The notes beneath the pieces were generated by a model. That model was not told the origin of the DNA. It searched no databases and was given only the letters and a program-made list of their open reading frames with translations. A program made the position numbers and the translations under genes. Below are positions 7,666 through 60,224 of a stretch of 64,000 bases of DNA, in pieces; position 1 is the first letter of the stretch, and every line of letters begins with the position of its first letter. This DNA comes from Nymphaea colorata. Taxonomy: Eukaryota > Streptophyta > Magnoliopsida > Nymphaeales > Nymphaeaceae. The DNA is taken from contig NC_045141.1 in assembly GCF_008831285.2 (NCBI RefSeq), forward strand, positions 1,304,001-1,368,000. The letters run 5' to 3'.

Positions 7666-10600
7666 GTACGCCCCGTCAACTGGAGTCGATTCTTCGTCTT
7701 CTTGTTTGAACTTGTGATATCTGTTTCTGTGTCTTGTCTACTTCAATTAGACAGACTAACAAATGCTGTATGTAATGTAGTATATACTTGACTTGACTTT
7801 CGAGAAAAAGGATAGAATACACCCTTAAGGCCAGTTTTGACTGAGGATTTTGATCAGGAAACTTCTAATGTTGGACAATCACTCTTAATCCTATTCCACC
7901 ACATATCTAAATCTAAATGAAGCACTATGAAAAGCAGCAAATAAACATACTAAATTATAATTGTGAAAATAAATCAGAACTTTGTGTCATACCTAGAGAC
8001 ATGGTTATCTTATTTCGAATGGTTGCATTTCTTCTCATCTCACCTGGAAAATTATCATATATTCATGTTACGATGGATGGCATCCTATGTTGTCAAGGCA
8101 CCTAGGCGCTGCCTAGGCAAAAAAAAGCGACCAATTTTTTCTTTTAGTCATGTTAATATGTCAAGCTATTTTGATTAACTATTACTAATATTTGAAATGT
8201 GGAGAGTAGTAGTATGCAATAAGGAGATGATGAAGCTGCCCAGTCCACCTTTAATCTATGATTCTTCAAACATGCATGTGTAACTTCTTTGTTCCAGGTT
8301 CTCTCTGCTGACCACTTTTACTTTACCTTATAAAGGCCTATCATCACCATCAACCAACCATAATCCTTTGACCAAGCATATGCTGATTTTTAATAACTTC
8401 CTGCATAAGTATCAAAATTGAGTGTGGAAAGTAATATCAACAACTGAACAAGATTTTCTGTGATTAGATGTCGATATGCAACAATTCATCACTAGATAAC
8501 ATATGTATCAAAGGATTTTCTTTGCTTTAATATACTATACACAGTCAAGATACTTGTAATGAATCTAGTTTGTGTAGGTTGGATTAGTTCGGCTAAATGC
8601 ATAAATTTCTCTTGAGACTCAATACATAAACATAGTTGTAAATGTATTTTGTAATATTTTGGCTTGTTCAACAACTGATTTCATATCATATATGTCCCAA
8701 AATTTTCAAGCACGAGTTTCATAATAGGACATGAAGTACAAAGAGTAACCCATCTTGTTCAGTCAACAACTTATTTGCAGCTTTAAAATTGGATGCATTG
8801 TCTGTGATAAGCTGCAAAATGTTCTTAGCCTCAATGTCTTTTTCAACATCATAAAATGTACATGATTAAACATCAGTAGTTTTGGGAGTATCTGACAAAT
8901 TAGTGGATTTCATGAACATAGTACCTATAGTACTATATATAAGAAACTTTGTTAGTGTTCTTGACCATGTTTCGGTCCACCGATCTACTATAATACTGCA
9001 CCCCATTTCTTTCCAGCTCAAACTTAGTTAATCGAGATATGCCTTCACTTAATTGCTGCATCAAGAACTTTGTTTCTGAGCTGATGGTAACATTTTATAT
9101 TGAAGGCCTATAGAAGCAATATGTACTCATAAAAACCATCTTCCAACTGCATTACTTGTCAGTTTTACCATATTTTTTGAAGTCATAGATGTACAAATAT
9201 AGGCTACGAACCTGAAGCACTATACGAAGGGAAATAGCTTCTCATTGTTCCAAAAGCACTCGACCTACCATTAGGTGCTTGCTCTACAACTAGACCTGCT
9301 ACTAATGCACCCGTTCTTTTCCTGCTGGAACTGGAAGTGTAGCATGCATTACCTATTTTCTTTTGCCTTCAAGCTGGCTACATCAGATCTTACACTTTGC
9401 TAACTAGAATCAGGATCCTCCTCATCGTTGTCCTCGGGTTCCCAAGGCTCAATATAGCCAATTTCTGCTTCATCTATTTCTCCTTTTTTTTTTGCTTTAA
9501 GGCATTGATCACATAAAAAATTGCTGTCCCACAAATGATGACTATTGATGTTATTTACTGGCAGTGTGTGGAGCCACATTCTCATGCATACCAAGTACGC
9601 CTGTGCTAATAATTGTTTTTTTTGACAATGCTTGCAAATGATTTTCAACTGATCATTTTCGTGCACGTCGCCATTGCTGGTGTTAACATATGTAGAAATA
9701 AAATATGCACGAGAGTAGAAGATAGCACACCAAGGTAACGTGGAAAACCCTCAACACGAGGGAAGAAAAACCACGGGTGAGGAGGTCTGGTGCCCACTAG
9801 CAGCCAGACACTCTCTCTCTTAGAAACTTCATTAACTCTTAAGATTAGGGTTTACAGAGATATAAGTAGTCCTAACCAGGACAAACTGGATCGGGTCCAG
9901 ATCCGGACCTGTACAACAAAACCCGTCAACACTCCCCCTCAAGTTGGGCATACATATCAAACATGCCCAACTTGGATACATTTCTCTCAAATGGAGTTAC
10001 ACTTAAGGCCTTGGTTAGGATATCGGCAGTTTGGTCTTCAGACTTTATGTATGGTAGCGTTAATTCCTTATCATCAATTCTTTCTCTGATGAAGTGACGG
10101 TCAATCTCCACATCCTTTGTTCGATTATGAAGAACCGGATTGTTAGCCAAGTTAATTGCAGACTTATTATCACAATACATCCTCATAGGCCCTTCAATCT
10201 GTATTCCAATATCTGTCAGTAAGATCTTCAGCCATAACAATTCTGATACCCCAGTAGCCACAACCCTATATTCAGCCTCTGCACTCGAGCGGGAACAAAC
10301 ATCTTGTCTCTTGCTTCTCCAAACGACTAAATTTCCCCCCAAGTAGACGCAGTACCCTGAAGTAGATCTTCTGGTGTCAACACAGCCTGCCCAGTCTGCA
10401 TCAGAATACTCTTCAACTTCAATAGACCTTTGTTGCACATATAGAAGTCCCTTCCCGGGATTCTTCTTCAAGTAGCACAAAATTCTATCTACAGCCTTCA
10501 AGTGCACATCTGTAGGTGCATGCATGAACTGGCTCATCATATTTACAACAAAGGTGATATCAGGTCTAGTCAGAGTGAGATAAATCAGTTTGCCAACTAG

Positions 10601-13600
10601 ACGTTGATATCTCCCTTTAGCTTCTTCACACAACAGTTCTCTATCTTTGCTACCAAGTTTTTTTCCAGCATCTATAGGAGTAGAGGCTGGTCTGCACCCC
10701 AGTTTCCTGTCTCCTTCAATAGATCCAGGGTATACTTCCTTTGACTAAGTATAAGAGTTGTACCTGATCTAGCAATTTCAATGCCAAGGAAATACTTCAG
10801 TTTACCAAGATCTTTTAGATCAAATTCAGTAGATAGTAAACCCTTTAATCTTGCTATCTCTTCCTTATCATCACCTGTAACAATCATATCATCAACATAA
10901 ACCAACAGTAGAGTAACTTTACTCTCTATTCTCTTTACAAACAGGGTATGATCTCCATTTCCTTGTTTGTAGCCATGTTTCTTCATAACAAGTCTGAGCC
11001 GTTCAAACCATGCTCGGGGAGACTGTTGTAGCCCATACAAAGCTTTCTTCAATTTACAGCATTTTGTAGGTTTCTCAAAACCTGGTGGCATGCACATGTA
11101 CACTTCCTCTTCGAGATCTCCATTGAGAAAGACATTCTTCACATCAAGTTGGCACATCTCCCAACCCTTCAGCACCGCCAATGAAATAATAACTTTAACA
11201 GTCTTCATCTTTGCGACTGGAGCAAATGTCTCTAAGTAGTCGATCCCATATTTCTGACTGAACCCCTTGGCCACCAATCGTGCTTTGTACCTCTCAATGT
11301 TCCCATCTGGTTTGTACTTAACAGTGTAGACCCACTTTGACCTAACCAAATGGGCTGCTTCAGGAATATCAACCACCTCCCATGTCTGATTTCTGTCTAA
11401 AGCTTCCATCTCTTCTTTCATTGCATAAGACCACTTAGTGTCACCCTGAGCCTCTGTAGCATTCCTGGGAATCACAACCACAACCAAGGAGGATACAAAA
11501 CATTTATAGTCAGTGCTCAATCTAGAGTAAGATACGAAGTTACCAATAGGGTGCTGGGCACATGACCTGACACCCTTTCTCAAGGCAATGGAAAGGTCCT
11601 CCTTTTCTTTTTCAGTCTGAATTTCATTTCCAACATCTTGCTTCTGAACATGACTTGGATCATCTAAGGAAGAAGTAGGATTGGGATTTGGTGTAACCTC
11701 CTCATCATTAATCACCTTGTCAGTACAAGCTCTTCTCTTGGAATACACCTGTCCAAACATATGATTACCCTCTTGTTCTGTCACCATAGGATGCTCTCCC
11801 TCCTTCTCCTGTTCATGTACCTCAGTAGACGTCCCCTCTTCATCTTTGCCAAGCACCTTGGCAGCAGGATTCTCTTCACGCCTGTAATCCATAAAGTCTG
11901 TAAACTGAATTTCCTGTGTGGGAGAATACACTTCCTTAGACATTAACTTCTCCCCCTGAAGAGAATTCTCACCAAAAAAGGAGACATGTTCCAAGAATGT
12001 GACATCTTTGGTAATGTGAACTCGACCAGTGGTGGGATCTAGACATTTATACCCTTTTTGGGTGGAAGAATACCCAAGAAAGATGCCCTTAATAGATTTG
12101 GGATCAAGTTTTTTCACATTTGGGCTGTGGTTATGTATGAAACACACACATCCAAAGACTCGAGGAGGGAGGTGAAAAAGTTGACTACTCCCTAGAAGCA
12201 TAGAGTAGGGAGCACGACCCTTTAGCACACGACTAGGCATGCGATTAATCAAGTAGACACTTGTAAGGATTGCATCTCCCCAATAGTACTTTGGGAGATT
12301 TCTTTAGAACAATATGGCTCCGGTAACATTGAGCAACTGACGATTTTTCCTCTCAGCAACCCCATTTTGAGGGGAGGTATAACTACAGGATGTCTCATGA
12401 ACAATCCCCCTCTTTCGAAAGAACAGTGAGACACATATATTCACGAGCATTATCAGACCGAAATGTCTTAACAAAATTTCCATACTGGTTTTCCACTAGG
12501 AGGATGAAAGTTTCAATAATGTGAGGCACCTCACTACGATCTTTCAACAAATACACAAAGGTACACCTTGAATAGTCATCTATAAAAGTTATAAAGTACT
12601 GAAAACCACCACGAGAATAAATGCCCGAAGGCCCCCACACATCAGAATGAACCAAGGAGAAAGCTTTATTAGAACGACTATTTGAAATTGGATATGAAGC
12701 TCTAACATGCTTCGCAAACTGACACACATCACATGATAACATGGAAATGTTTAAACTAGAACATAGTTCAGGGAACAATTGTTTCAAAATCCCAAATGGG
12801 AGATGACCAAGGCATTCATGCCAAAACAAAAATAACTGACGACACTCTTCCTTCTTTTTCTCTGTCCTGCTGACTGCTGACATAAGAGCTGTGGCAACGC
12901 GTATAAGAAGCCGATATAACCCATCAGACACCAAACCAATCCCAATCCTCTTCCCTGTCACCAAGTCCTGCAAAACACAACGTTTTTCAGAAAATATAAG
13001 TTCACACTTCAGTTCCTTGGTAATCTTACTAACAGATAACAAATTTAAGGGAAGATGGGGGACATGTAAGGCATCGTGAACTAAAAAATTATTCAACAAG
13101 GAAAGACTCCCTTTCCCTGCCACAAAAGTAAAGGAACCATCGGCAAGGGACACACGTTCCCTTCCCGAGGATAGCTTGTAGTCATGGAAAAGCTTGGGGT
13201 TGCCAGTCATGTGATGAGTGGCACCACTATCAACAATCCATTCACCCATATAAGAAGTACCTTCTGCCCCTAAAACAGCCAATGCCTGATTGATCTTCAC
13301 CTCAACTGGTGAATCTGCCTGACCAACATCAATCTGCGCGCAGCTCACGAATCTGTTCTGTAGAAATAGAACCTTTCCCATCACTAAGACTTGTTGCAGA
13401 CAATACAGGCTTCTTCCCACTAGAAGGCCTCACCCTACTATCCTTCTTCTCTGGATGCAGGTCCCAACAAAAATCTCTAGTATGACCAAGTTTTTTGCAA
13501 TGTGTACATTTCCGGGAAGAACGAGGAGTTCCCACAGGGGCACGGCTAACATAGGCAGACTGTTCTTCCCCTTTTCGTCCACTAGAGAGCAGCCTTCTCT

Positions 13601-14911
13601 GTTCTTCAGCTTCAACTCGGGAATAAACATCTTCAATACTGAATGATTCGTCAGAGTTAAGAATCCGACTCCTTATATTTTCAAAGTCATCATTCAGTCC
13701 GGATAAGAAAAGGAATACCCTGTTCTCCCATTTATCGGTCATATACTGCATCTGGTCTTGAGGACACCTCCATGTAATATCAGAATGATAGTCAAGGTCC
13801 TCCCACTTCGATTTTAATGCTGCATAAAAGTCTGCAACCGAAAGAGCACTTTGTCGCAGGGCATACACATCTTTCATAAGTTGATACACACAAACTTTCT
13901 TTTTCTTTTAACCATACATCTGCTCCAAAATAATCCACATATCCCTTGCAGTCTTCTTGCGAAGAATGAGGGGTTGGATATCCGGGGACACTGAATTAAC
14001 ATTCCAGGTTTTTACCTGGTTGTCTTCAAGAAACCATGTATCCCAAGCCAGACTATCTTCAGCAGGTTCGACCTTTCTCCCATTCACATAGGCAATGCGT
14101 CCTCGCCCAGCAATCCCCATAGTAATTGCAGTAGACCATCGTGAATAGTTCTCCTTGGTAAGTTGAATGGTGGTAACTTGAACCGGTACATGATCAGTCC
14201 GCGCAGATGCAACATCAGGTAGATTGGTATTGACTGAAGAGGAAGACGAGTCAGCCATGATCACCGGCTAGAAGCGGCTGCCCAACAACACACACAGCAG
14301 CGGCAACCCAGAGGACGGCAGTGGCAGAGGCGCAGCACAGTAGCAGCGTCGGGTGGCGCGACGCAGCCAGGGATCAACGGCGAAAGCAGAGGGCGGCGCT
14401 TGGCAGCGCGCGCGGAGAACAGGCGGCGTCGACAGAGGCGTCGGACGTCGGCCGGTCGTCGTGCGGGAGGCGTCGGTGATGAACAGTGGAAGGATTCCGT
14501 CGGGCGATGAACAGTGCCGGGGACCTCCTTCAACACAATCGAACGATTAAGCAACAGTAACGCCGAAACTTCATGGCTCTGATACCATGTAGAAATAAAA
14601 TATGCACGAGAGTAGAAGATAGCACACCAAGGTAACGTGGAAAACCCTCAACATGAGGGAAAAAAAACCACGGGTGAGGAGGTCTGGTGCCCACTAGCAG
14701 CCAGACACTCTCTCTCTTAGAAACTTCATTAACTCTTAAGGTTAGGGTTTACAGAGATATAAGTAGTCCTAACCAGGACAAACCGGATCGGGTCCAGATC
14801 CGGACCCGTACAACAAAACCCGTCAACAACATACAGTATGGTTACTCATACTCTATATACTATATATCTATTGTATATATAATTATCCTTCTATAGTGGG
14901 ATTGTGTGTGA

Positions 14912-30500: not shown

Positions 30501-33500
30501 TGGTGCCTAAAGGTAAGGTCCTTCTATTGCATAAAGCTCTATGTAGGCTGAAACAAGCACCAAAGGTTTGTTTTAATAAATTTAAGCAAGTAATGGTTAA
30601 ATGTGGTTTTGAATCATGTTTATACTGACACTGCATTGTTTGTAGGAAAGTCTAATGCAGGGATTATAATTCTACTTTGTACATGGATTATAATTCTACT
30701 TTGTACACTGCATTGTTTGTAGGAAAGTCTAATGCAGGGATTATAATTCTACTTTGTACATGGATGATATGCTAACCATAGAAGTGATCATGGAGGAATC
30801 GGGGGCACTAAGAATATATTGAAAAGGAAAAATTGAGATGACTGACTTGGGTTCTTAACATATTTCTTAAGTGTTGAACAAGAAAAGTTTTATGTTTTAG
30901 GAGGTTCCTTGTAATATTAAAGAGTTATAAGATCTCTTTAATATTTTCCTTATTTCCCATTGAGTTATTTTGTAAATCCCTTTTCTACCCTAATCTCTTT
31001 TATAAGAGAGATAAGGGTTATCGTAATGAGGCTTCTTTCGGTTCAATCTCACGGCAGCTTCTCTCTCTCACTCTCTTCTTCTCCGCTGCAACATGGTATC
31101 AGAGCTACGGACGTGACTGGCGACGTGAAGCACATAGCCGGCGCGCGGACGTGACGCACACCGTCGGCGATCCTCCGTCTCCTTTCAGGCTTGATCTCTT
31201 CCACTTCCTCCGTTTCTTTCTCCTTCACCTCTCGCCTGTTCTAGTTGCTGTTTTCCAGCAACAGAACAGTGTGGAGGAGTCTATTCACGCTAGGAGAGAT
31301 GCGTGAATAGACTCCAGCCGTGGATTTTCAGAAGTGTATATAGTATCGCAGCTGTGTGGGAGTCTGCGCTGATTAATCGCCTATGATTTGATATGTTATA
31401 TGATCAACGCAGCCAAGTGGAGGACTGCTATCTATGACGTCTATGGCAAGTTTATGTTGATGGTCTTATTTGCTGTCGTTATTCATGATCTGTGAAGGAT
31501 AAACTGTGGTACAGCAGCATTAGATGCATAAATAGATAAGTCGTTGGTTAGCGCAAACAATACAAACAGTGGGGATTCGTTTTCAGTTGTGGGCTTACTG
31601 ATAGCAGCGTTTTTCTGTCTTCAGATTGCAGTCTTCTTTGTTGTGGTATTGCTGTCACCAGTTGGACAGCAGGTTGATTGTTTCTGCGCACCTAACGTTG
31701 CCGTGTGGGACGTCTGTTCTTGTTGATCAGTTTCTTTTTCAATAGAAATATATATATATATTCTCTTGCTATTGGTGGTTGATCTCTTGTGGACAGATTT
31801 ATGATGGCTGAAAGTAATAAATCTGATTTTTCTCATGAAGTTAAAAGTGGAGGAAATCCATTTTCGTATGGTTCTACTGTAAAGTTAGATGGATCTAACT
31901 ATGAGATTTGGTCTCGTGTGTTTATGATGTCTGTGATTGAACATCAAAAGGAGCATGTTATAGAAGAAAACGAACCTGTTGAAAAGAGTGGAAAATGTAG
32001 TTCATGGAAGGGAGATAATAATATTGTCATGTCATGGATCATGAATAGTGTGCAACCCCAAATTGCATCAACTATTGCATACTACACATCGGCTAAGCAA
32101 ATGTGGGATTTCTTGAAACAGACTTACTCGAATGACAGGAATATTAGCAAAATATTGCAGGTAGAGGAGGAACTACTTAATCTGCAACAGGGTGACCAAA
32201 GTCTTGCTCAGTACTTCGCTTCCCTTAAGTCCATCTCTGAGCGACTTAAAGCATTACGTCCTCCATGTCCAACATGTTATAAGACCCATGGTGAACAGTC
32301 TATGGTTGTGAAATTCCTACAGGGTCTCTCCTCTGAATATGCAGTAGCAAAGGCTCAGATGCTGACTGGAGCAGAAATCCCTGATCTAGCTGAAGCCTAC
32401 AACAGGCTCAGTCGTCTTGCTGTGACCCTCTCTTCACCTGCCAGTGATATCCATGCCTCTGCCTTAGCAGCTTCAGGAGGACGTGGACGCGGTTTATTCA
32501 GGGGAAGAGGCATGGGCCGTGGGTCAGGAGGAGGTCGGGGGAGATTTCAGTGCACTTATTGTGGGAAAATAGGTCATTTGGAAGACAGATGTTGGGATAA
32601 ACATGGTCGTCCTACTGCAGCTCCATCCTTAGGCAGAAATGTTACATCAAAGCTGGGGAATAACTCTTTACAGTCTTCTATTGGAGCGGCCCAAGCAGCG
32701 TCATCAGTAGTAGATGGGTCTTTATCTTCTTCTCAGCCTGAGACAATGACTGTGAGTATCAATAAGTCAGAGTGTGAGGACTTTTTAGCACACAGATCTA
32801 CTCAGCCATCGGCCTCCACAGTTATGATTGACAGCTGTTGACACTATCTCACATGATACAGGTACTACTTGGATCATTGATTCAGGGGCATCGAGGCACT
32901 TTTGTAGTAAGCCTTCTATGTTTACTGTGCTACACTCACTACCTCAGATACGTCATGTGAGACTTGCAGATGGTAGATTGTCACCCATTATGGGATATGG
33001 AGATATCAAGATCTCTCAATCTATGACTATTCCCAATGTGTTATATGCTCTTAAGTTTCCCACAAATTTGTTATCTGTCGGACAATTGGTTAATGATTTA
33101 CATTGTCGTGTTACGTTTGATCCTGGTTTATGTTCATTTCAGGACTTGCCAACTGGGAAGACGATTGGTGGAGGCTATGAGAAAGGGGGCATCTACTTCC
33201 TGTCGAATCTCGTGGGTATTGCAGCATCATCGATCACATCGTTGTCCTCCTCGTTCCAGTGGCATCTCAGACTTGGTCATCCATCTGTCTCCAAGCTCCG
33301 TCATCTCCTTCCACATCTCTCCTTACCAGAGTCGTTCCAGTGTGAAGCTTGTCAACTTGGCAAATACACTCGTAGTAGTTATTCATCGAGTCTTAGTACG
33401 TCTAGTTGTGGACTATTTGATCTTCTTCATGTTGATGTGTGGGGTCCTAGCAGAGTTGCTAGTAGGTCAAGATTTCGTTATTTTCTTGTCATCGTAGATG

Positions 33501-36500
33501 ATTATTCTCGAGTCACCTGGGTTTTCCTTTTGAAGGAAAGGTCTGAAGTCGTATGTACTCTCAAAAACCTTATTATTGAAATAAAGACCCAGTTTGGTAT
33601 TCTGGTTAAAAACATTCGCACTGATAATGCTTTTGAGTTTAAGGCATCTACCTTAATGAAGTTCTACTCAGATAATGGCATTTCTCCTCAGTTTACATGT
33701 CCCCATATTTCCCAGCAAAATGGAATAGTTGAGCGAAAACATCGTCAACTTTTAAATGTAGCTCGTTCCCTTATGCTTCATACTAATCTCCCTGCATATT
33801 TTTGGGGAGATGCTATTCTTACTGCTTGCTACTTAACCAATCGTTTACCCTCATCCTCCATTGATAACCAGATCCCCATTAAACTTGTGCACCCACAAAG
33901 ATCCTTGTTTCCAGTGGCTCCCAAAGTATTTGGTTGCACATGCTTTGTTCACATTCTTGGACCCACACGTGACAAATTGGGAGCCCAAGCCATTAAATGC
34001 ATTTTCATTGGCTACTCCAGAAACCATAAAGGCTACAAATGCTTTGATCCCTTGACTCAAAAAGAGTATATCAGTGCGGATGTCACATTCTTTGAGTCTC
34101 AACCTTATTATAGCCTCACTCCTATATCTGTTGAGATGCCACGATCTCTAGACCCACTACCTATTCCTCCTATTCCTTTGGAGTCATTCCCTGTTGAATC
34201 TCCTTCGTCTGTTGTGTCCAAGTTTCGTGATCCACCGCTGGTCTACACACGTCGACAGGACCCTTCTCATAATCCTTTGCCAACCGTTTCTCAGGAGGTA
34301 AGTACATCTGAAGTGCATAGCCCTACTCATTCTGATCCTTGTCAAGACTTACCTATTGCTCTTCGCAAAGGCAGACGACAATGTACTTTACATCCTATAT
34401 CTCATTTTGTGTCTACTGATGGGGTTGGTAAAAATATGCAACAATTCATTCATGCTTTGGCTGCTCATACAGTTCCTACGTGTCACCAGCAGGCCTTATT
34501 AGACACCCAATGGAGACGGGCTATGCAAGATGAGATGGATGCCTTAGTGCAGAGGGGCACTTGGGAACTTGTTGATCTTCCTTTTCGATGTGATATTGTT
34601 GGCTCAAAGTGGGTATTCACAGTTAAGTATAATTCTGATGGTTCTTTGGAACGATACAAAGCTCGATTGGTTGCTAAGGGCTACACGCAGACCTACGGTG
34701 TGGATGTCTTTGAGACCTTCTCTCCAGTTGCTCGGTTGGGAACCATTTGTCTTATTATTTCTGTGGCTGTCCACCATGACTGACACATGTATCAACTGGA
34801 TGTCAAAAACGCCTTTTTGTATGGTGATCTTGATGAGATTGTCTATATACAACAACCACCGGGATTTGAACGACAGGGGGAGTGTGGAAAAGTGTGCAAG
34901 CTGAAGAAAGCTATTTATGGACTCAAACAGAGTCCTCGTGCGTGGTTTCACAAGTTTTTCGAGGTAGTCTCACGGTGTGGCTTTGTGAGATCTCCTCTTG
35001 ATCATTCCTTGTTTATCAAGAAGGCTTCCAGAGGTATAACTGTTCTCGTGGTTTATGTTGATGATATTATCCTGACGGGTGATTTTGATCAAGAAATTTC
35101 TGATGCAAAGCTGTTTCTTCAAAAACACTTTGTGACGAAAGATCTGGGTCCTCTACGATACTTCTTGGGAATAGAAGTTGCTCGCAATAGGGAGGGTGTT
35201 GTTCTCTCTCAACGGAAGTATGTTCTTGATTTATTGCAGGACACAGGGATGCTAGGAGCTAAACCGGCAAATTTACCTATGAATCCACATATACATCTTC
35301 ATGATGACCAAACAGAATTAGTGGATTCTAGATCTTACAGATCCCTTATTGGAAAACTTCTCTATGTTACCGTGACAATACCAGACATTAGTTTTGCAGT
35401 GGGAAAACTAAGTCAATTTATGGAAAAACCAAGGAAAGTTCATTGGGATGCTGCTTTGATGGTGGTTAAATATCTGAAATCTTCTCCTGGTAAAGGCCTT
35501 TTGTTCACAAAAGGCAAGACTTTGGAAGTGGAAGCATATAGTGATGCTGATTATGCTGGCTCAGTAGAGACAGAAAATCTACCACAGGATTTTGTGTATT
35601 TGTGGGAGGCAATCTCATATCGTGGAGAAGAAAAAAACAAGGTGTGGTGTCAAGATCTAGTGCAGAATCCGAATACAGAGCTATGGCTCAAACAACAGCA
35701 GAAATGACGTGGGCTAGATCCATGCTATCCAACCTAAGTGCGTCAATCACACTTCCCATGAAGATGTATTGTGACAATCAAGCAACCACACACATTGCAA
35801 ACAATCCAGTTTTCCATGAAAGAACTAAACATATTGAAGTGGATTGTCATTACATTCGGGGATCTCGTTCAAGCAGGAACCATTGCCACTGTTCATGTTC
35901 CTTCAGAAGATCAAGCTGCAGATATCTTCACCAAAGCTCTTCCTATTGGTGATTTCTCTAGATGTTGTGACAAGCTGAGCATGTTTAATATGTATGCTCC
36001 AGCTTGAGGGGGAGTGTTGAACAAGAAAAGTTTTATGTTTTAGGAGGTTCCTTGTAATATTAAAGAGTTATAAGATCTCTTTAATATTTTCCTTATTTCC
36101 CATTGAGTTATTTTGTAAATCCCTTTTCTACCTTAATCTCTTTTATAAGAGAGATAAGGGTTATCGTGATGAGGCTTCTTTCGGTTCAATCTCACGGCAG
36201 CTTCTCTCTCTCACTCTCTTCTTCTCCGCTGCAACATTAAGTATTGGAGTGGCATTCCCTCCAAGAGGATATTTTCTATCTGTGACATCAACAGGTCTGG
36301 CATCACAGATGATTAGATTGCTGAGATACCAGAGGTAGTGGGAACAAAGATGAAACATGGCCCATTATAAAAGTTGTCTTTGCCATGTAAGAAACACAAC
36401 AGCAATTGTAGCATTTTATAACAAATTTAGGAATGACATTGAGGATACTTAGGCATGCCATTTGAGAATTATTAATAAGTAACTAATTTTGTTGAAGACC

Positions 36501-41337: not shown

Positions 41338-44300
41338 ACACTGGTGGGTATGCCTGTGGTGTGCGTTGACCATACCGGGTACGGTCAACGCATCGGAGGT
41401 GATTTTTGACCTTTTTTGGACACGGTCAACTTTGATCGAGTCCAAATGTGTCCTTTTTTAATTTTAACGATTTTTAGATTTTATCATTTAAAACCATTTT
41501 AACGTTAAAAAAAAAATGAAAGTTCGAAACCCTTAAAACATGTTTTCGTTTTAAGGGTTTCATTCTCCTCTCAAGGTGCGACGGCCGGCAGGGGTGGCCA
41601 CGACAGACGAACGGCGACAGCGGTATATTTTTGTTTTTATCATTTTTTAGTTCATTTTCATCGGCTCCGCCCCTGCCTTCACCGCCGGTGACGACAGACG
41701 GCAGGGGCGATGATCTTACAGGATTTGGGTGGTGTTTTTGTCTACAATGTTCTTGAACGTGATGATCTTGATAGGCCGACAACAAGATTGATAAAAGAAC
41801 TCTGCATATTCTGTATTGCATGTTCTATACTGATTGAGAAGAAGTCCTATTTCCGAACATTCTTTGCTGCATGTTGTCTTGTAATGATTGAGAACAAGTC
41901 CAACTATATTGCATGCTCAACAAGTCAGACAAAGAGAATTCTGCATCATGTTTTTTCTTAAAGCTAATTGAGAACGAGTCCAATTACCATGTTATCTGCA
42001 TCAGATATTGTCTTGTACTAATTAGGAACAAATCCATTTGATATTGGTGTGATATATCGTTTCATGAGAGGTTTCGCCTATTTGGAATGATCCCTGTTTC
42101 TATTGGTTCTGTGTTGCAGCTCTTTTGCTAGGTGCTTTTCATGTTGTAATGGCTGATAAAGGAAAAGAAACGATGCCTGTAAGTGGAAGTGGAAATGTAG
42201 TGAGCAGCAGTAGTAGTGTTAATACCACTGCAATAGAGAAGGATAATCCATCTCAGCCTCTTTGGCGCTATGTGAACAAACTAGGAAAAGGACCAGGTGG
42301 TGGTGGTAATGTAATTTTTTGTTGCAAATTATGTAATATGACTTACACTGGCTCTTATACATGTTGCAAAGCACATTTCTTGCATATCTCAGGCGTTGGA
42401 ATTTGACCATGCCCAAAAGTTACCAAAGAGGAGATTCGAATATTAAAAAAAGAACAGGATGCAGCTGAGGCGAAGAAATCTTCAGCCAAGTCAAGTGTAT
42501 CTGTTCCTCTTTATGCTATTGAACAAGGTGAAGATGGTTCAAAGAAAAGGAAAACATTATCACAAGCATTCAATAATATGGGAAGGGCAGAGATGGATAG
42601 AAGGATCAGAAGGTTTTTTTTTGCAAGTTCACTTCCTTTTAATGTAGCTAGAAATCCTTATTGGAAAGATGTTGTTACAGGTTTGGCTAATTGCAGTTTG
42701 AGTGGTTATGTACCCCCGAGTTCAGAGAAGTTGACCATAGTAATTCTTGCAAAAGAGAAGGCAAACATTGAAAAATTATTAGAGAAGAAGAAATTTTCAT
42801 GGATACAATATGGAGTATCCATTGTTTCTGACGGGTGGACTGATATACAAAGGCGGTCACTGATAAATTTTATTACTTATTCGCTTGATGGACCAATCTT
42901 CTTGAAATCTGTTGATGCATCTGGGGAGTATAAAGATGCTGAGTATTTAAAAGGCTATTTATAGAAGTCATCAAAGAAGTGGGTGAGGATAATGTTGTGC
43001 AAATTGTTACTGATAATGCTCCAGTTTGCCAACGAGCAGGGATGAATTTGGCAAGTGATCCTAAATATAGTAACATATTTTGGACTCCTTGTGTGGCACA
43101 CAGTATAAATTTAGCACTTAAAAGTATTTGCAACCCATCAAAAGATGATCCAAATGCAGGTTTGTTGTGTTCATGGATTGAGGAGCTTGAGCATGATGTC
43201 AGAAACATAAGAAATTTGGTTGTAAACCACAACAATGCTCTTGCTATATTTAATAGGCATTCTAATTTGAAATTGTTGAAGGTAGCAGAGACTCGTTTTG
43301 CATCTATTATTGTAATGATAAAAAGAATAAAGCAGGTGAAACATGCATTAACACTTATGGTGACTGACAATGATTGGGACTTTTATCAGAGTGATCACAT
43401 TGTGAAGGCATCAGAAATTAAAAAAAATATTTTAGATGATGAATGGTGGGATAAAGTTACATATTTTCTGCAGTTTACAGAGCCTATTTGGCAGATGCTG
43501 AGAGATAAAGAAGGGCCCATGCTTCATAAAGTTTATGATATGTGGGATAACATGATTGAAAAAATTCAAAACATCATTTTCATAGGGAGTCAAGATCTAT
43601 ACAGGCATCTTAATGGTTCCATTCTAATCCAATCCAACCACAGTTCATTCAACAAGAGATTAAGAATGAGAGAGCGGAGACAATTTCCACTTAGGAAATT
43701 CGTAATCCTCAATTTATAACATGGATGAAGCGAGATCAAAGTCTTGTTGGATATATCACATCAACGCTCTCTCAAGAAGTGTTGATTTCTCTTTTTGATG
43801 ACTATACAGTAGGATAGTTATAGGTCAGAGTTGCTGAAACCTATTCTCAGATTTCAGAGGCACGTATTATATATTTGAAGAAGGAATTTCAGAGTCTTTC
43901 CGAAGGATCAATGTCGATTATGGAATATTTGGGACGTGTTAAAGGGATAGGTGATCAGTTGGGAGTTGTTGGATATTTGTTGGATACCTTGTTTCCGACA
44001 AAGAAGAAGTCCAACAGACTCTTAGCAGTCTCAGCCCAGATTTTTATGCCTTCACTACTATTGAAGTTTTGCCTATCTTGACCACTTTCAGTGAACTTTA
44101 GGGCAAACTGCTTCAACATGAAATGAACATGAAACAACTGATAGGAGGAACAAACCAAGGTAATGCTCACAATGTTTTAGTTATTGAAGCTGCTGCAGGT
44201 CATATAAAGGGAGGCATGAATTGTAGGCATATTGGACAAAATGGCCAAGGTATTTTGCCAACACCGAGTGTTACAAGAAGATTTCAGAACAATACAAAGA

Positions 44301-47300: not shown

Positions 47301-50300
47301 AATATACTCGTAGGAAGTATATAAAAGGTACATTAGATATCAACTCATCTTCAAAAGCACTTTGTTACAAGAGATCTTGGTCCTCTTAGGTACTTTTTGG
47401 GCATTGAGGTGGTTAGAAACATTGAAGGGTTGGTTTCTATCACAAAATATGTGCTTGATTTCTTAAGAAAAATAGAAAAGCTATGGGCCAAACCAACCAA
47501 CATCGTTGTGGATCCTAAATGTCTATGATGGACAAGCAAAACTAGTTGCCAACAGAAGTTCTAGGTTATTGGTTGGCAAACTGCTGTATATGACTGTGGC
47601 AGGGCCAGCTATTTCTTTGGCTGTAGGCAAGAGAAGCCAATTTATGGACAAGCAAGCCAAAGTTCACTTGGAAACCGCTATGATGATCTTGAGGTATTAA
47701 AATCCTCTTTTGGTAAGGGGTTGTTGTATTAACAAAGTTCGTTCCTTGAATACTTGCATACCTTGATACTGATTATGTAGGTGCCATTGATGATAGAATG
47801 TCTACCACTGATTCACAGATTCATGTATATTTGTAGGAGAGGACTTAATTACTTGAATAAGTAAAGAGCATATTGTTGTAGTCCGATTGAGTGCAGAATC
47901 CTACGACACACGGACACGGCAAAATGGCCGCATAGCAGCCTCGACACTCCGACACGTGGATCCCGACACTTGGACACGGTAGGAAACGTTTTGATCCGAA
48001 CCACTACAGGTAAGTGGCTTTTTTTTTCTTTTCGATATTAGAAGTTAGGAATCGAGAAGCAGCCTCCCTCCCATCGAGATCTTCTACGAAGAGGCGAAGG
48101 AATTGGAGCCACGGAAGTCAGGGGCGCGATGCAGAGGAACCGCTTGATGCTGCCCTGTCTGACCGGCGCCAATCTCATGTCCGGCGAGAAATTCCTGCCC
48201 GAGAAGCGACTGTCGCGGTGACCCAACTCCAGATCAGGGAACGCAGAGTTGTGGCGGCGGTGGTGATTGCCGTAGTAATTCCCTGAGGTGGGCTTCTCCG
48301 GCTGCGGTGTGGCGGTGGAGGAGAATCCTTGGTCGTGGGCGTAGTGGGACTGGTAGAGCGGGTTGTGATTGGATTGGTCACCGAAGTGCTTGGAGCCATC
48401 GGAGAGGCAGTGGTACTTCCGTCGGACGTTGTGCCTCTTGATCTTTCTGTAGATGAAAGGGACCAACCCCTCCATTTCCATCGCAGAGGAGAAGAGAGTT
48501 ATTAATTTAATTTAAAGTTATTAGATTGTAAGAGTGTATTTAATGTTTTTTTTATTTTATTATCATTTTTAATTTTTTAGAATATAAAATTTGCCGTGTC
48601 CGCGTATCCTAAAATTTTGAAAATTGCCGTGTCCGCGTACCTGTACCCATACCCGTACCCGTATCGTACCCGCACCCATGTGACATAGGCAGAATCTAAA
48701 TATGGAGCCATGACTTAAACAACTATTGAGATGATAAAGATTAATTTAATTCCAAAAGATCTACATGTAGAGGTTTCTGCTCCAATGGTAATGGGTGATA
48801 ATAGAACTGCTAGCTACATTGGTAAGAGGCCTGTTTTCCATGAGAGAATGAAGCAAGTTGGGGTTGTTTATCATTACATTAATACAATCAGGTCTTAGAG
48901 GACCACGTTTCAGATGTCTTTATCAAGCCTATTACCGGCTCAGGTTTTTCCAAGTGCTGTAATGAGCTCAGCATCATTCATATATATGCTCCCAGCTTGG
49001 AGGGGTGTGAAAAGCAATATATTATAGTTTGGGTGGTCATGCATGAGTTTGTCATGCATGACTTTAGTAAACTTACATATATTTTGCTGTTATGTTGTTT
49101 TAACTCTAACCTAATTTAACATGGGGTTTTGTCATGCATGACTTTAGTAAACTTGCATATATTTTGCTGTTATGTTGTTTTTACCCTAACCTGATTTAAC
49201 ATGGGGTTAAGTGTCTAATAAAATTAACTATTTTTTGCCTTCTCTTGCTTTCTCCCTTTCTTATCTTCTCATCATCTCTTTTAGTATAAAACTTCTAGTA
49301 AGGCTGTGTTTAATTGCATGGATAATCCTTACTTCACGATAACTCTTGCCTGATGTTTGGTCCTAGTTGGAGTAGGCAATCAAACAACCGATAAGATTAT
49401 CTAGATTTTTCCCTGCACTTTTGCCTAAAAGGAGGTAAGAAATGTCAAGCCCACAAGGAGTCTGACTTTTTCAACCCATGCATCAGAAAGTGAAGTCTTG
49501 TGGTGGTGACGAGAATGTTAAGATAGTATTAGCTCATTGTTGACCAGTTTTTGCTGTTTGCAGGCCCATCTCCATGAACAGACTAGATCCATGCGACTTA
49601 GGCTAGTCTATACTGTCAAGTGCATAATGCTGCACTGTAGCTGAAGCCACAGTCACCGATATCGATCTTGACTGCATTTAAGTGTGGAGGATCTTTTTTA
49701 GTAATGGTTTTTTAATAAATCTTGTGAAAATCTTGGAAATTAAAAAATTGTGAAGAAAAGGAATGCTATTGGTTAAGCAAATAAATGAAGTTCTACGATA
49801 ACATTGCAATAATAGTGTGAGATTATATTATCCAGATATTCTCGTGAATGATTTAATTTTCCTGTATTTTCAGCTTATTCCAGTTTTCCAATATCCACTG
49901 AGCTGTCATAGAAATTGCGTATTGTTAAAAACTTAAAATTATGGCAAAAATATTTTCCTGTGGATGGAACTCATCAGAAGGTGGCGTTTTCACAAAATTA
50001 AGCATACAAGTGCAATCTCCATGTTTAGAAACCTAGCAGTCAACAAAAAATTAGCTTTTGATTCTTGTCACTGTAAATGGGATTTTAAAGTGTGAAAAGT
50101 TAAAGATGGTCAATTGGTCTATATGTTTTGAAACTATGGTTTTCCTGTGCTCCCTAGTTCTTTGGATGTGGATTACATCAATGTTCTTAGGTTCACTAGG
50201 GGGGTTGTTTGATTACCTCAGATTTTAGATCCATGGATCTGATTTGACGTGATTTGCTGATAGCCAAAGATCCATGGTTCATCAAGCTGAGGATCTTAGG

Positions 50301-59221: not shown

Positions 59222-60224
59222 CTATGTAACACGGGTACGCCCCCAAAGGGGGGGGCGTACCCGTCCGGTACCGGTACGACACCGGTACCGGTAAGGGCCT
59301 GGGTACGGCCCCGATACGCGTTGACCGTATCGGGTACGGTCAACATACCGGGGACCGTATCCGTCCAAAATTGGACCCAGTCAACATTGACCGGGTCCAA
59401 TTTTGTCCATTTTTTTTAAACGTTTAACTGATTTTAACGTTAAAAAATATTTTGACGTTAAAAGAAAAAGGTAAAACGAAACCAAAACCTTCGACTCCTT
59501 ACCTCTCGTCTCTCTTCGGCAACATTTACCTCTCCGGCAACGAAGCAGCGGCGACGGCAGCTGCGAAGATAGGAGGTGACTGAAGTTTTTTACATTTTTT
59601 GTTTTCATTTTAATCGGCCCCTGCCTTCGCCGCTGGCAACGACCGGCGACGGGTTTTGTGTGTTGTTCGCCTGAAAGTGAAAACCCATCACCCCTCCCTC
59701 TGGCTCGCCCTTTCTCTACGGTTTCAAATCTCTCTCTTTGTGTTTCAAATCTGTGAATACGAACCAAGATGTTGAATCGTAGGCCTCGACGTCCCTAAAT
59801 CTTTGATGACCAACCACCAATCCGAGAGGGTTTCAAATCCCTTTCAAATATAATAGATGCCTCCTTTTCATTCTTCAATCTTCACTGTCTTAGAATATGA
59901 GGCCTTTTCATTCTTCACTGTCGTAGAATATTGTTGAATGTGGATTGCATTTGCCGGCAGGGTATTGTAGAATGTCGATTCTGCATTGCATTTGCCGGCA
60001 GGGCATCGAATGAGTGCTGCACTCATGCCGATGTTTGTTTTTTACCATGATTTATGTGTTTTGGACCATGATTTATGTGTTTTCAACCATGATTTATGTG
60101 TTTTTGACCATGATTTATGTTTGTGTGTTATTCTGTTTGCTTTTTTTTGATATATATGTGTGTACCCCCGTACCCAAGTTTTTTGAAAATGGTCTGTACC
60201 CGTACCCGTACCCATGTGACATAG
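59222..60224. mobile_element. Non-autonomous hAT element nested in the larger hAT
   Basis: Ends CTATGTAACACGGGTACGCC (left) and CTATGTCACATGGGTACGGG (right, reversed) are inverted repeats. The flanks GGGTACAA (59214-59221) and GGGTACAG (60225-60232) match at 7 of 8 positions, an aged 8-bp duplication. It contains GGTACC/GGTACGG palindromic subterminal repeats, a GC-rich centre and a 22-bp tandem repeat at 60041-60125. There is no transposase. It lies in the 3' terminal region of the larger hAT element. Confidence 0.85.
60041..60125. repeat. 22-bp tandem repeat, four copies
   Basis: ACCATGATTTATGTGTTTT with small changes, repeated in tandem. The ORF across it is a repeat translation. Confidence 0.9.

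What the first reader, a model, noticed from the sequence alone, without database searches (positions are those of the whole stretch)
47901..48688. hAT element carrying a captured gene-like ORF
An exact 8-bp duplication (GCAGAATC) and matching terminal repeats define a 788-bp element. Its GC-rich centre has a 147-codon open frame beginning MEMEGLVPF with no transposase features. This has the form of transduplication of a host gene fragment.
Basis: partly seen in the sequence, partly recalled or inferred. Interest (0 to 1): 0.75.

Follow-up and report, generated by a model that had tools for sequence, protein, structure and literature searches.

The report
Jumping gene carrying copied plant gene
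A small plant 'cut-and-paste' transposon has swapped part of its middle for a copy of the whole coding part of what looks like an ordinary gene from elsewhere in the genome; this is a clear, well-preserved example of a process already known in this class of transposons, and it probably has no function of its own.

Summary
Window 47901-48688 is a 788-bp non-autonomous hAT element between exact 8-bp duplications. Eight of eight related sites aligned read through the join with a single, slightly diverged 8-mer. The family is large: 361 left ends within two mismatches; 22 of 25 two-ended copies have flanking 8-mers that match with at most one mismatch. A 3.4-kb relative with similar ends carries DUF659 and Dimer_Tnp_hAT domains.

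Element positions 152-593 are a 94% identical copy of one locus on another large contig. That locus has no family ends within the 14.5 kb read and a single-copy upstream flank. The copy spans the donor's whole 121-codon frame plus about 12 nt before and 70 nt after it. The 147-codon frame is 119 donor-derived codons plus 28 new ones, because a 2-bp difference bypasses the donor stop. No second element with this payload was found: capture without amplification. Selection on the copy is not needed to explain its substitutions.

Capture by gap repair with template switching is inferred, not shown. Gene capture by hAT elements is published, so this is a new member of a known kind.

The parts
47893..47900 (.). 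left 8-bp target-site duplication GCAGAATC
   Evidence: single diverged copy at related empty sites
47901..48688 (.). 788-bp non-autonomous hAT element
47901..48049 (+). transposon-derived left part (end, subterminal CGGACACGG-type repeats, and a 44-nt block matching other copies), with two internal deletions relative to longer relatives
   Evidence: the deletion junction occurs once in the genome within 3 mismatches
48052..48493 (-). captured segment, 94% identical to C13:6855359-6855804; found in no other element
48125..48481 (-). donor-derived codons 1-119 of the open frame (dN 0.031, dS 0.104 to the donor)
48038..48481 (-). 147-codon open frame; the last 28 codons are new, read in another frame after a 2-bp difference that bypasses the donor stop
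48052..48116 (-). captured sequence from beyond the donor stop codon (58 of 65 aligned positions identical)
48494..48688 (+). short A+T-rich junction sequence of uncertain origin followed by the transposon-derived right end
48689..48696 (.). right 8-bp target-site duplication GCAGAATC

Best explanation
This is a Pack-hAT: a non-autonomous hAT transposon in which about 445 bp between its two ends is a copy of a host locus on another large contig (presumably another chromosome). Shown here: the family, the target duplication, the donor, the boundaries, and that no other element with this payload is found. Inferred: the copying was at the DNA level and happened during repair of a break or gap inside the element (after excision, at a fragile site, or at a stalled fork). 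The repair polymerase switched to the donor locus and back, which could also have left the two private internal deletions and the A+T-rich junction sequence. The element, inserted into a copia-like retrotransposon remnant, may still have been movable by a transposase supplied elsewhere. The captured frame is most probably a passenger drifting without function.
For: One donor, 94% identity (420 of 446 columns) over element positions 152-593. The donor encodes a 121-aa frame with GC3 0.84, a single-copy upstream flank and no family ends in the 14.5 kb read, so the direction is host to element. Of 34 family members compared, only two have an uncovered internal stretch of 30 nt or more: this one (150-594) and the 3386-bp relative L079, whose uncovered stretches include its transposase region. 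L079 shares both ends (76% over 94 nt left, 84% over 133 nt right) and has DUF659 (1.7e-44) and Dimer_Tnp_hAT (5.7e-14) in two of three pieces scanned. Family-wide 8-bp duplications and empty sites. The T-tract beside the payload belongs to the transposon, so there is no poly-A sign of a retrocopy. The internal-deletion junction is private. The substitution pattern (9 nonsynonymous, 6 synonymous over 354 nt) is ordinary for a neutral copy against a constrained donor: P(N<=9) 0.28-0.66 over the nine settings tried.
Against: The mechanism is not shown directly. Microhomology is at best 3 nt on the left and ambiguous on both sides. The donor is on another contig, whereas the animal single-copy Pack-TIRs explained by gap filling show a bias to nearby donors (PMC8277862, passages). 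The donor frame has no Pfam hit, only a meaningless NCBIfam hit (E 0.21), no PDB match at E<=1, no paralogue in the genome at E<=0.001, and no expression evidence here, so 'gene' rests on frame, GC3 and substitution pattern; the 15 substitutions are too few to prove constraint. No outgroup was available, so no change is polarised. The outer TIRs of this copy are imperfect, and not every relative shows a clean 8-bp duplication.
Confidence: 0.93

Rival explanations
1. The captured frame is a young functional gene: it is expressed from the element as a 147-aa protein or as antisense RNA that tunes the donor.
For: The frame is open over 147 codons and its first 119 codons keep the donor frame without a stop. 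Differences per site are fewer in the coding part (15 of 355) than in the part beyond the stop (7 of 65).
Against: A neutral copy gives as few nonsynonymous changes with no stop in 20-51% of simulations. The donor promoter was not captured (only about 12 nt upstream of the ATG match), the donor stop is bypassed, and the C-terminus is new. No transcript data were available.
Confidence: 0.05
2. The similarity arose the other way: the C13 locus derives from the transposon payload.
For: Both copies are single, so numbers alone do not set the direction, and no outgroup was available.
Against: The C13 locus has no family ends in the 14.5 kb read, and its upstream flank is single-copy. The match stops where the element's sequence becomes that of other family members. 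The C13 frame ends in a stop that the element's frame bypasses.
Confidence: 0.02
3. The captured copy is a retrocopy of mRNA rather than a DNA-level copy.
For: The donor frame is uninterrupted, so intron loss cannot be used as a test.
Against: There is no poly-A tract at the 3' side of the payload. The T-tract nearby lies outside the payload and is shared with other copies of the transposon.
Confidence: 0.04

Closest known systems
Gene-bearing Ds2 and Ds-l4 elements of maize (Ds2-22, Ds2-18, Ds-l4-354; PMC3260210, abstract and passages read)
   Same: Non-autonomous hAT elements with filler DNA, in a few cases copied from genes on other chromosomes (2 Ds2 and 9 Ds-l4 elements with gene fragments in that paper); the sequence in Ds2-18 is annotated as a complete gene. 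The paper calls such capture a rare feature in hAT elements.
   Different: Ac/Ds family of maize; its ends were not compared here. The cases in its Figure 4 include introns; here the payload is one uninterrupted frame.
Pack-hAT elements, most numerous in maize (PMC8903248, passages read)
   Same: Non-autonomous hAT elements with 8-nt TSDs carrying coding DNA.
   Different: That paper reports its largest clusters of maize elements in hAT and PIF; this payload was found in one element only.
Hatvine-6 of grapevine (PMC2528002, passages read)
   Same: hAT family in which regions between shared ends often match genic sequence from elsewhere in the genome.
   Different: Hatvine-6 elements share a transposase coding sequence; this copy has none.
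Single-copy Pack-TIRs of animals (PMC8277862, passages read)
   Same: A single-copy payload inside a TIR element, explained there mostly by gap filling with template switching.
   Different: Animals, with a bias to nearby donors; here the donor is on another contig and microhomology is weak.

Membership tests
hAT superfamily | 8-bp target-site duplication | tested here: met
   exact in this copy; 22 of 25 two-ended relatives with at most one mismatch, 3 of 25 worse; empty sites in 8 of 8 loci aligned
hAT superfamily | short terminal inverted repeats | tested here: met
   CTATGTCACACGG on both sides in common copies, imperfect in this copy; they do not begin with the motif I recall for Ac-type elements
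hAT superfamily | transposase with hAT dimerisation domain in a member with the same ends | tested here: met
   L079, 3386 bp: DUF659 and Dimer_Tnp_hAT, similar ends, flanks 7 of 8 alike. Its frame lies in pieces; no intact source element was identified. None of 30 other hAT-domain loci examined had these ends
Pack-TYPE / Pack-hAT element | non-autonomous: no transposase | tested here: met
   longest frame is the 147-codon one, no Pfam match; the remaining parts match short family members
Pack-TYPE / Pack-hAT element | internal segment copied from host coding DNA outside the transposon | tested here: met
Pack-TYPE / Pack-hAT element | donor is a bona fide expressed or conserved gene | tested here: inconclusive
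   121-aa frame, GC3 0.84, dN/dS about 0.3; no useful profile hit or paralogue; no plant proteome or transcriptome available
Transduplicated and amplified payload | several elements share the payload | tested here: not met
   one element copy found in the genome

The most novel reading that the evidence does not exclude
The element has turned a whole host coding sequence into a new chimeric gene, running antisense to the transposase direction of a hAT family, with a new 28-residue tail, expressed either as protein or as an antisense regulator of its donor.
Probability: 0.05. Interest if true: 0.5.

Novelty: new member of a known kind. Interest (0 to 1): 0.33.

Why it matters
Gene capture by hAT elements has been called rare (PMC3260210). 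An example with a single identifiable donor, related empty sites and clear boundaries helps in asking how cut-and-paste transposons pick up host DNA. The payload and the internal-deletion junction are private to one copy, which fits repair at one place rather than spread of a pre-made composite. It also warns that a gene finder could annotate the 147-codon frame as a paralogue of the donor.

Tried and rejected
Pfam on the 147-codon frame, and Pfam, NCBIfam and PDB on the donor frame, gave nothing useful (one NCBIfam hit at E 0.21, far below its cut-off). A full-text search for seven N-terminal letters of the donor gave 0 papers. A paper search aimed at the species and one at the species plus gene capture were not informative (listings only). 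A first look for an autonomous partner took 30 of the 150 scored Dimer_Tnp_hAT matches, with about 1.5 kb on each side; none had this family's ends, and the BLAST matches (best E 0.012) look like chance. The partner came instead from one left-end hit (L079). Of the two other places read further, L077 had no right end in 4 kb and L078 is a 790-bp copy with an exact 8-bp duplication of its own. Timing insertion against capture by private substitutions (5 of 218 at the ends; payload 22 of 420, to be split between two branches) did not separate the two events. Selection on the captured copy was tested and is not needed. The dN/dS covers 357 nt and includes one difference that is only an effect of the 2-bp gap; one search leaves it out. 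A MULE was considered because of the gene capture, and rejected for the 8-bp duplications and the hAT domains. A search of the paper on Pack-TYPE elements for whole-gene capture terms gave no passage.

Full report
OBSERVATION. The window lies in an unnamed assembly of 407,766,735 bases in 783 contigs. At 47901-48688 there is a 788-bp element between exact copies of GCAGAATC. Read inward, its ends are CTACGACACACGG and CTATGTCACATGG. In common related copies both ends read CTATGTCACACGG. The left end occurs 361 times within two mismatches (186 forward, 175 reverse; reversed-pattern control 0 and 0). Of the 30 such loci fetched, 25 have a recognisable right end within about 1.5 kb. Their flanking 8-mers are identical in 16, differ by one base in 6, by two in 2, and do not match in 1. 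Of the other five, L072 gives an exact 8-mer with a relaxed end pattern, L076 has ends but no matching 8-mer at them, and L055, L058 and L067 show no right end. An 8-bp target duplication is thus a family trait.

EMPTY SITE. The two flanks joined with one GCAGAATC (258 nt) were searched against the genome. Besides the window's own two flanks there were 19 matches; the 8 fetched were aligned. In 8 of 8 the alignment runs through the join without a gap there, with one 8-mer: GCAGAGTC in six, GTAGAGTC and GCAGGGTC in one each. These are related sites (70-75% identical), not the same site in another plant. The flank looks like the RNase H end of a copia-type retrotransposon (recalled motif); a nearby frame at 46036-46515 matches RVT_2.

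SUPERFAMILY. L079 (C1, 3386 bp between ends, flanks GTTAGAAG and GTTAGAAA) matches the window element at its left end (76% over 94 nt), at the 44-nt block 106-149 (84%), and at the right end (84% over 133 nt), in that order. Between these lie pieces of a transposase frame. Three pieces were scanned: one has DUF659 (1.7e-44), one Dimer_Tnp_hAT (5.7e-14), one nothing. This places the family in hAT. None of 30 other hAT-domain loci examined had these ends, so an intact source of transposase was not identified.

PAYLOAD. Element positions 152-593 match one other place in the genome, C13:6855359-6855804, at 94% (420 of 446 columns). A search with the donor protein finds only these two places at E<=0.001. 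In an all-against-all comparison of 34 family members, the window element has an uncovered internal stretch at 150-594. The only other member with an uncovered stretch of 30 nt or more is L079, where they include the transposase region. The payload is thus foreign to the family as sampled, and single-copy in the assembly.

DONOR. The C13 locus has a 121-codon frame, [17 protein letters not shown]..., ending in TGA. It has 61% GC, 84% at third positions, with flanks at 38%. Its upstream 495 bp are single-copy apart from a 40-nt self match; the downstream side was not searched. No end of this transposon family occurs within two mismatches in the 14.5 kb read around it. No known domain was found. 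The direction is therefore host to transposon. That the donor is a real gene is likely, but rests on frame, composition and substitution pattern.

WHAT WAS COPIED. The copy runs from about 12 nt upstream of the ATG to about 70 nt beyond the stop. It contains the whole coding frame and not the promoter. A 2-bp gap relative to the donor just before the stop shifts the frame, so the 147-codon frame is 119 donor codons plus 28 new ones. The coding part has 15 differences in 355 sites and the stretch beyond the stop 7 in 65. dN is 0.031 and dS 0.104. With the copy neutral and the donor constrained, 9 or fewer nonsynonymous changes among 15 occur in 28-66% of simulations, and together with no stop in 20-51%. 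Selection on the copy is not needed, and not excluded.

MECHANISM (inferred). The T-tract beside the payload is shared with other copies, so it is not a poly-A tail; a DNA-level copy is likely. Compared with longer relatives, this copy lacks two stretches on the left. The junction sequence occurs once in the genome within three mismatches. A short A+T-rich stretch of uncertain origin sits right of the payload. Several private rearrangements in one element fit repair of a gap inside the element with template switching to the donor and back. This model is proposed for most single-copy Pack-TIRs of animals in PMC8277862 (passages read). Against it, microhomology is weak here (3 nt at most on the left), and the donor is on another contig whereas that paper finds a bias to nearby donors. 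Whether the gap arose by excision, breakage or fork stalling is open, and the private-substitution count could not order insertion and capture.

RELATION TO KNOWN WORK. Gene capture by hAT elements is published: maize Ds2 and Ds-l4 elements (PMC3260210, abstract and passages, which calls it rare in hAT), Pack-hATs (PMC8903248, passages), and Hatvine-6 in grapevine (PMC2528002, passages). The window element is a new member of that kind.

VERDICT. A real, well-delimited, ordinary Pack-hAT with a single donor. Interest 0.33; most novel reading (a functional new gene or antisense regulator) about 5%.

Noticed in passing
window 59222-60224: A second element of about 1 kb with related ends (CTATGTAACACGGG and CCCATGTGACATAG) and flanking 8-mers GGGTACAA and GGGTACAG; it appears to be another hAT of related type.
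   Followed up: partly
window 42979-43716 (+): Open frame with a DUF659 match (6.9e-15), probably a hAT transposase remnant about 4 kb before the element; its own ends were not looked for.
   Followed up: partly
L079 and relatives; element block 106-149: In 9 of 34 family members the block that borders the payload on the left carries CAGACAGGTAAGTG within two mismatches, which looks like a splice donor of a 5' intron of the transposase gene (by eye); the payload would lie in that intron, antisense.
   Followed up: no
window 9926-13889 (-) and 31789-35707 (+): Two copia-type retrotransposons with long open frames (assignment by eye).
   Followed up: no
assembly G000: Size (408 Mb) and large-contig pattern recall the water lily Nymphaea colorata; this is from memory and was not tested.
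   Followed up: no
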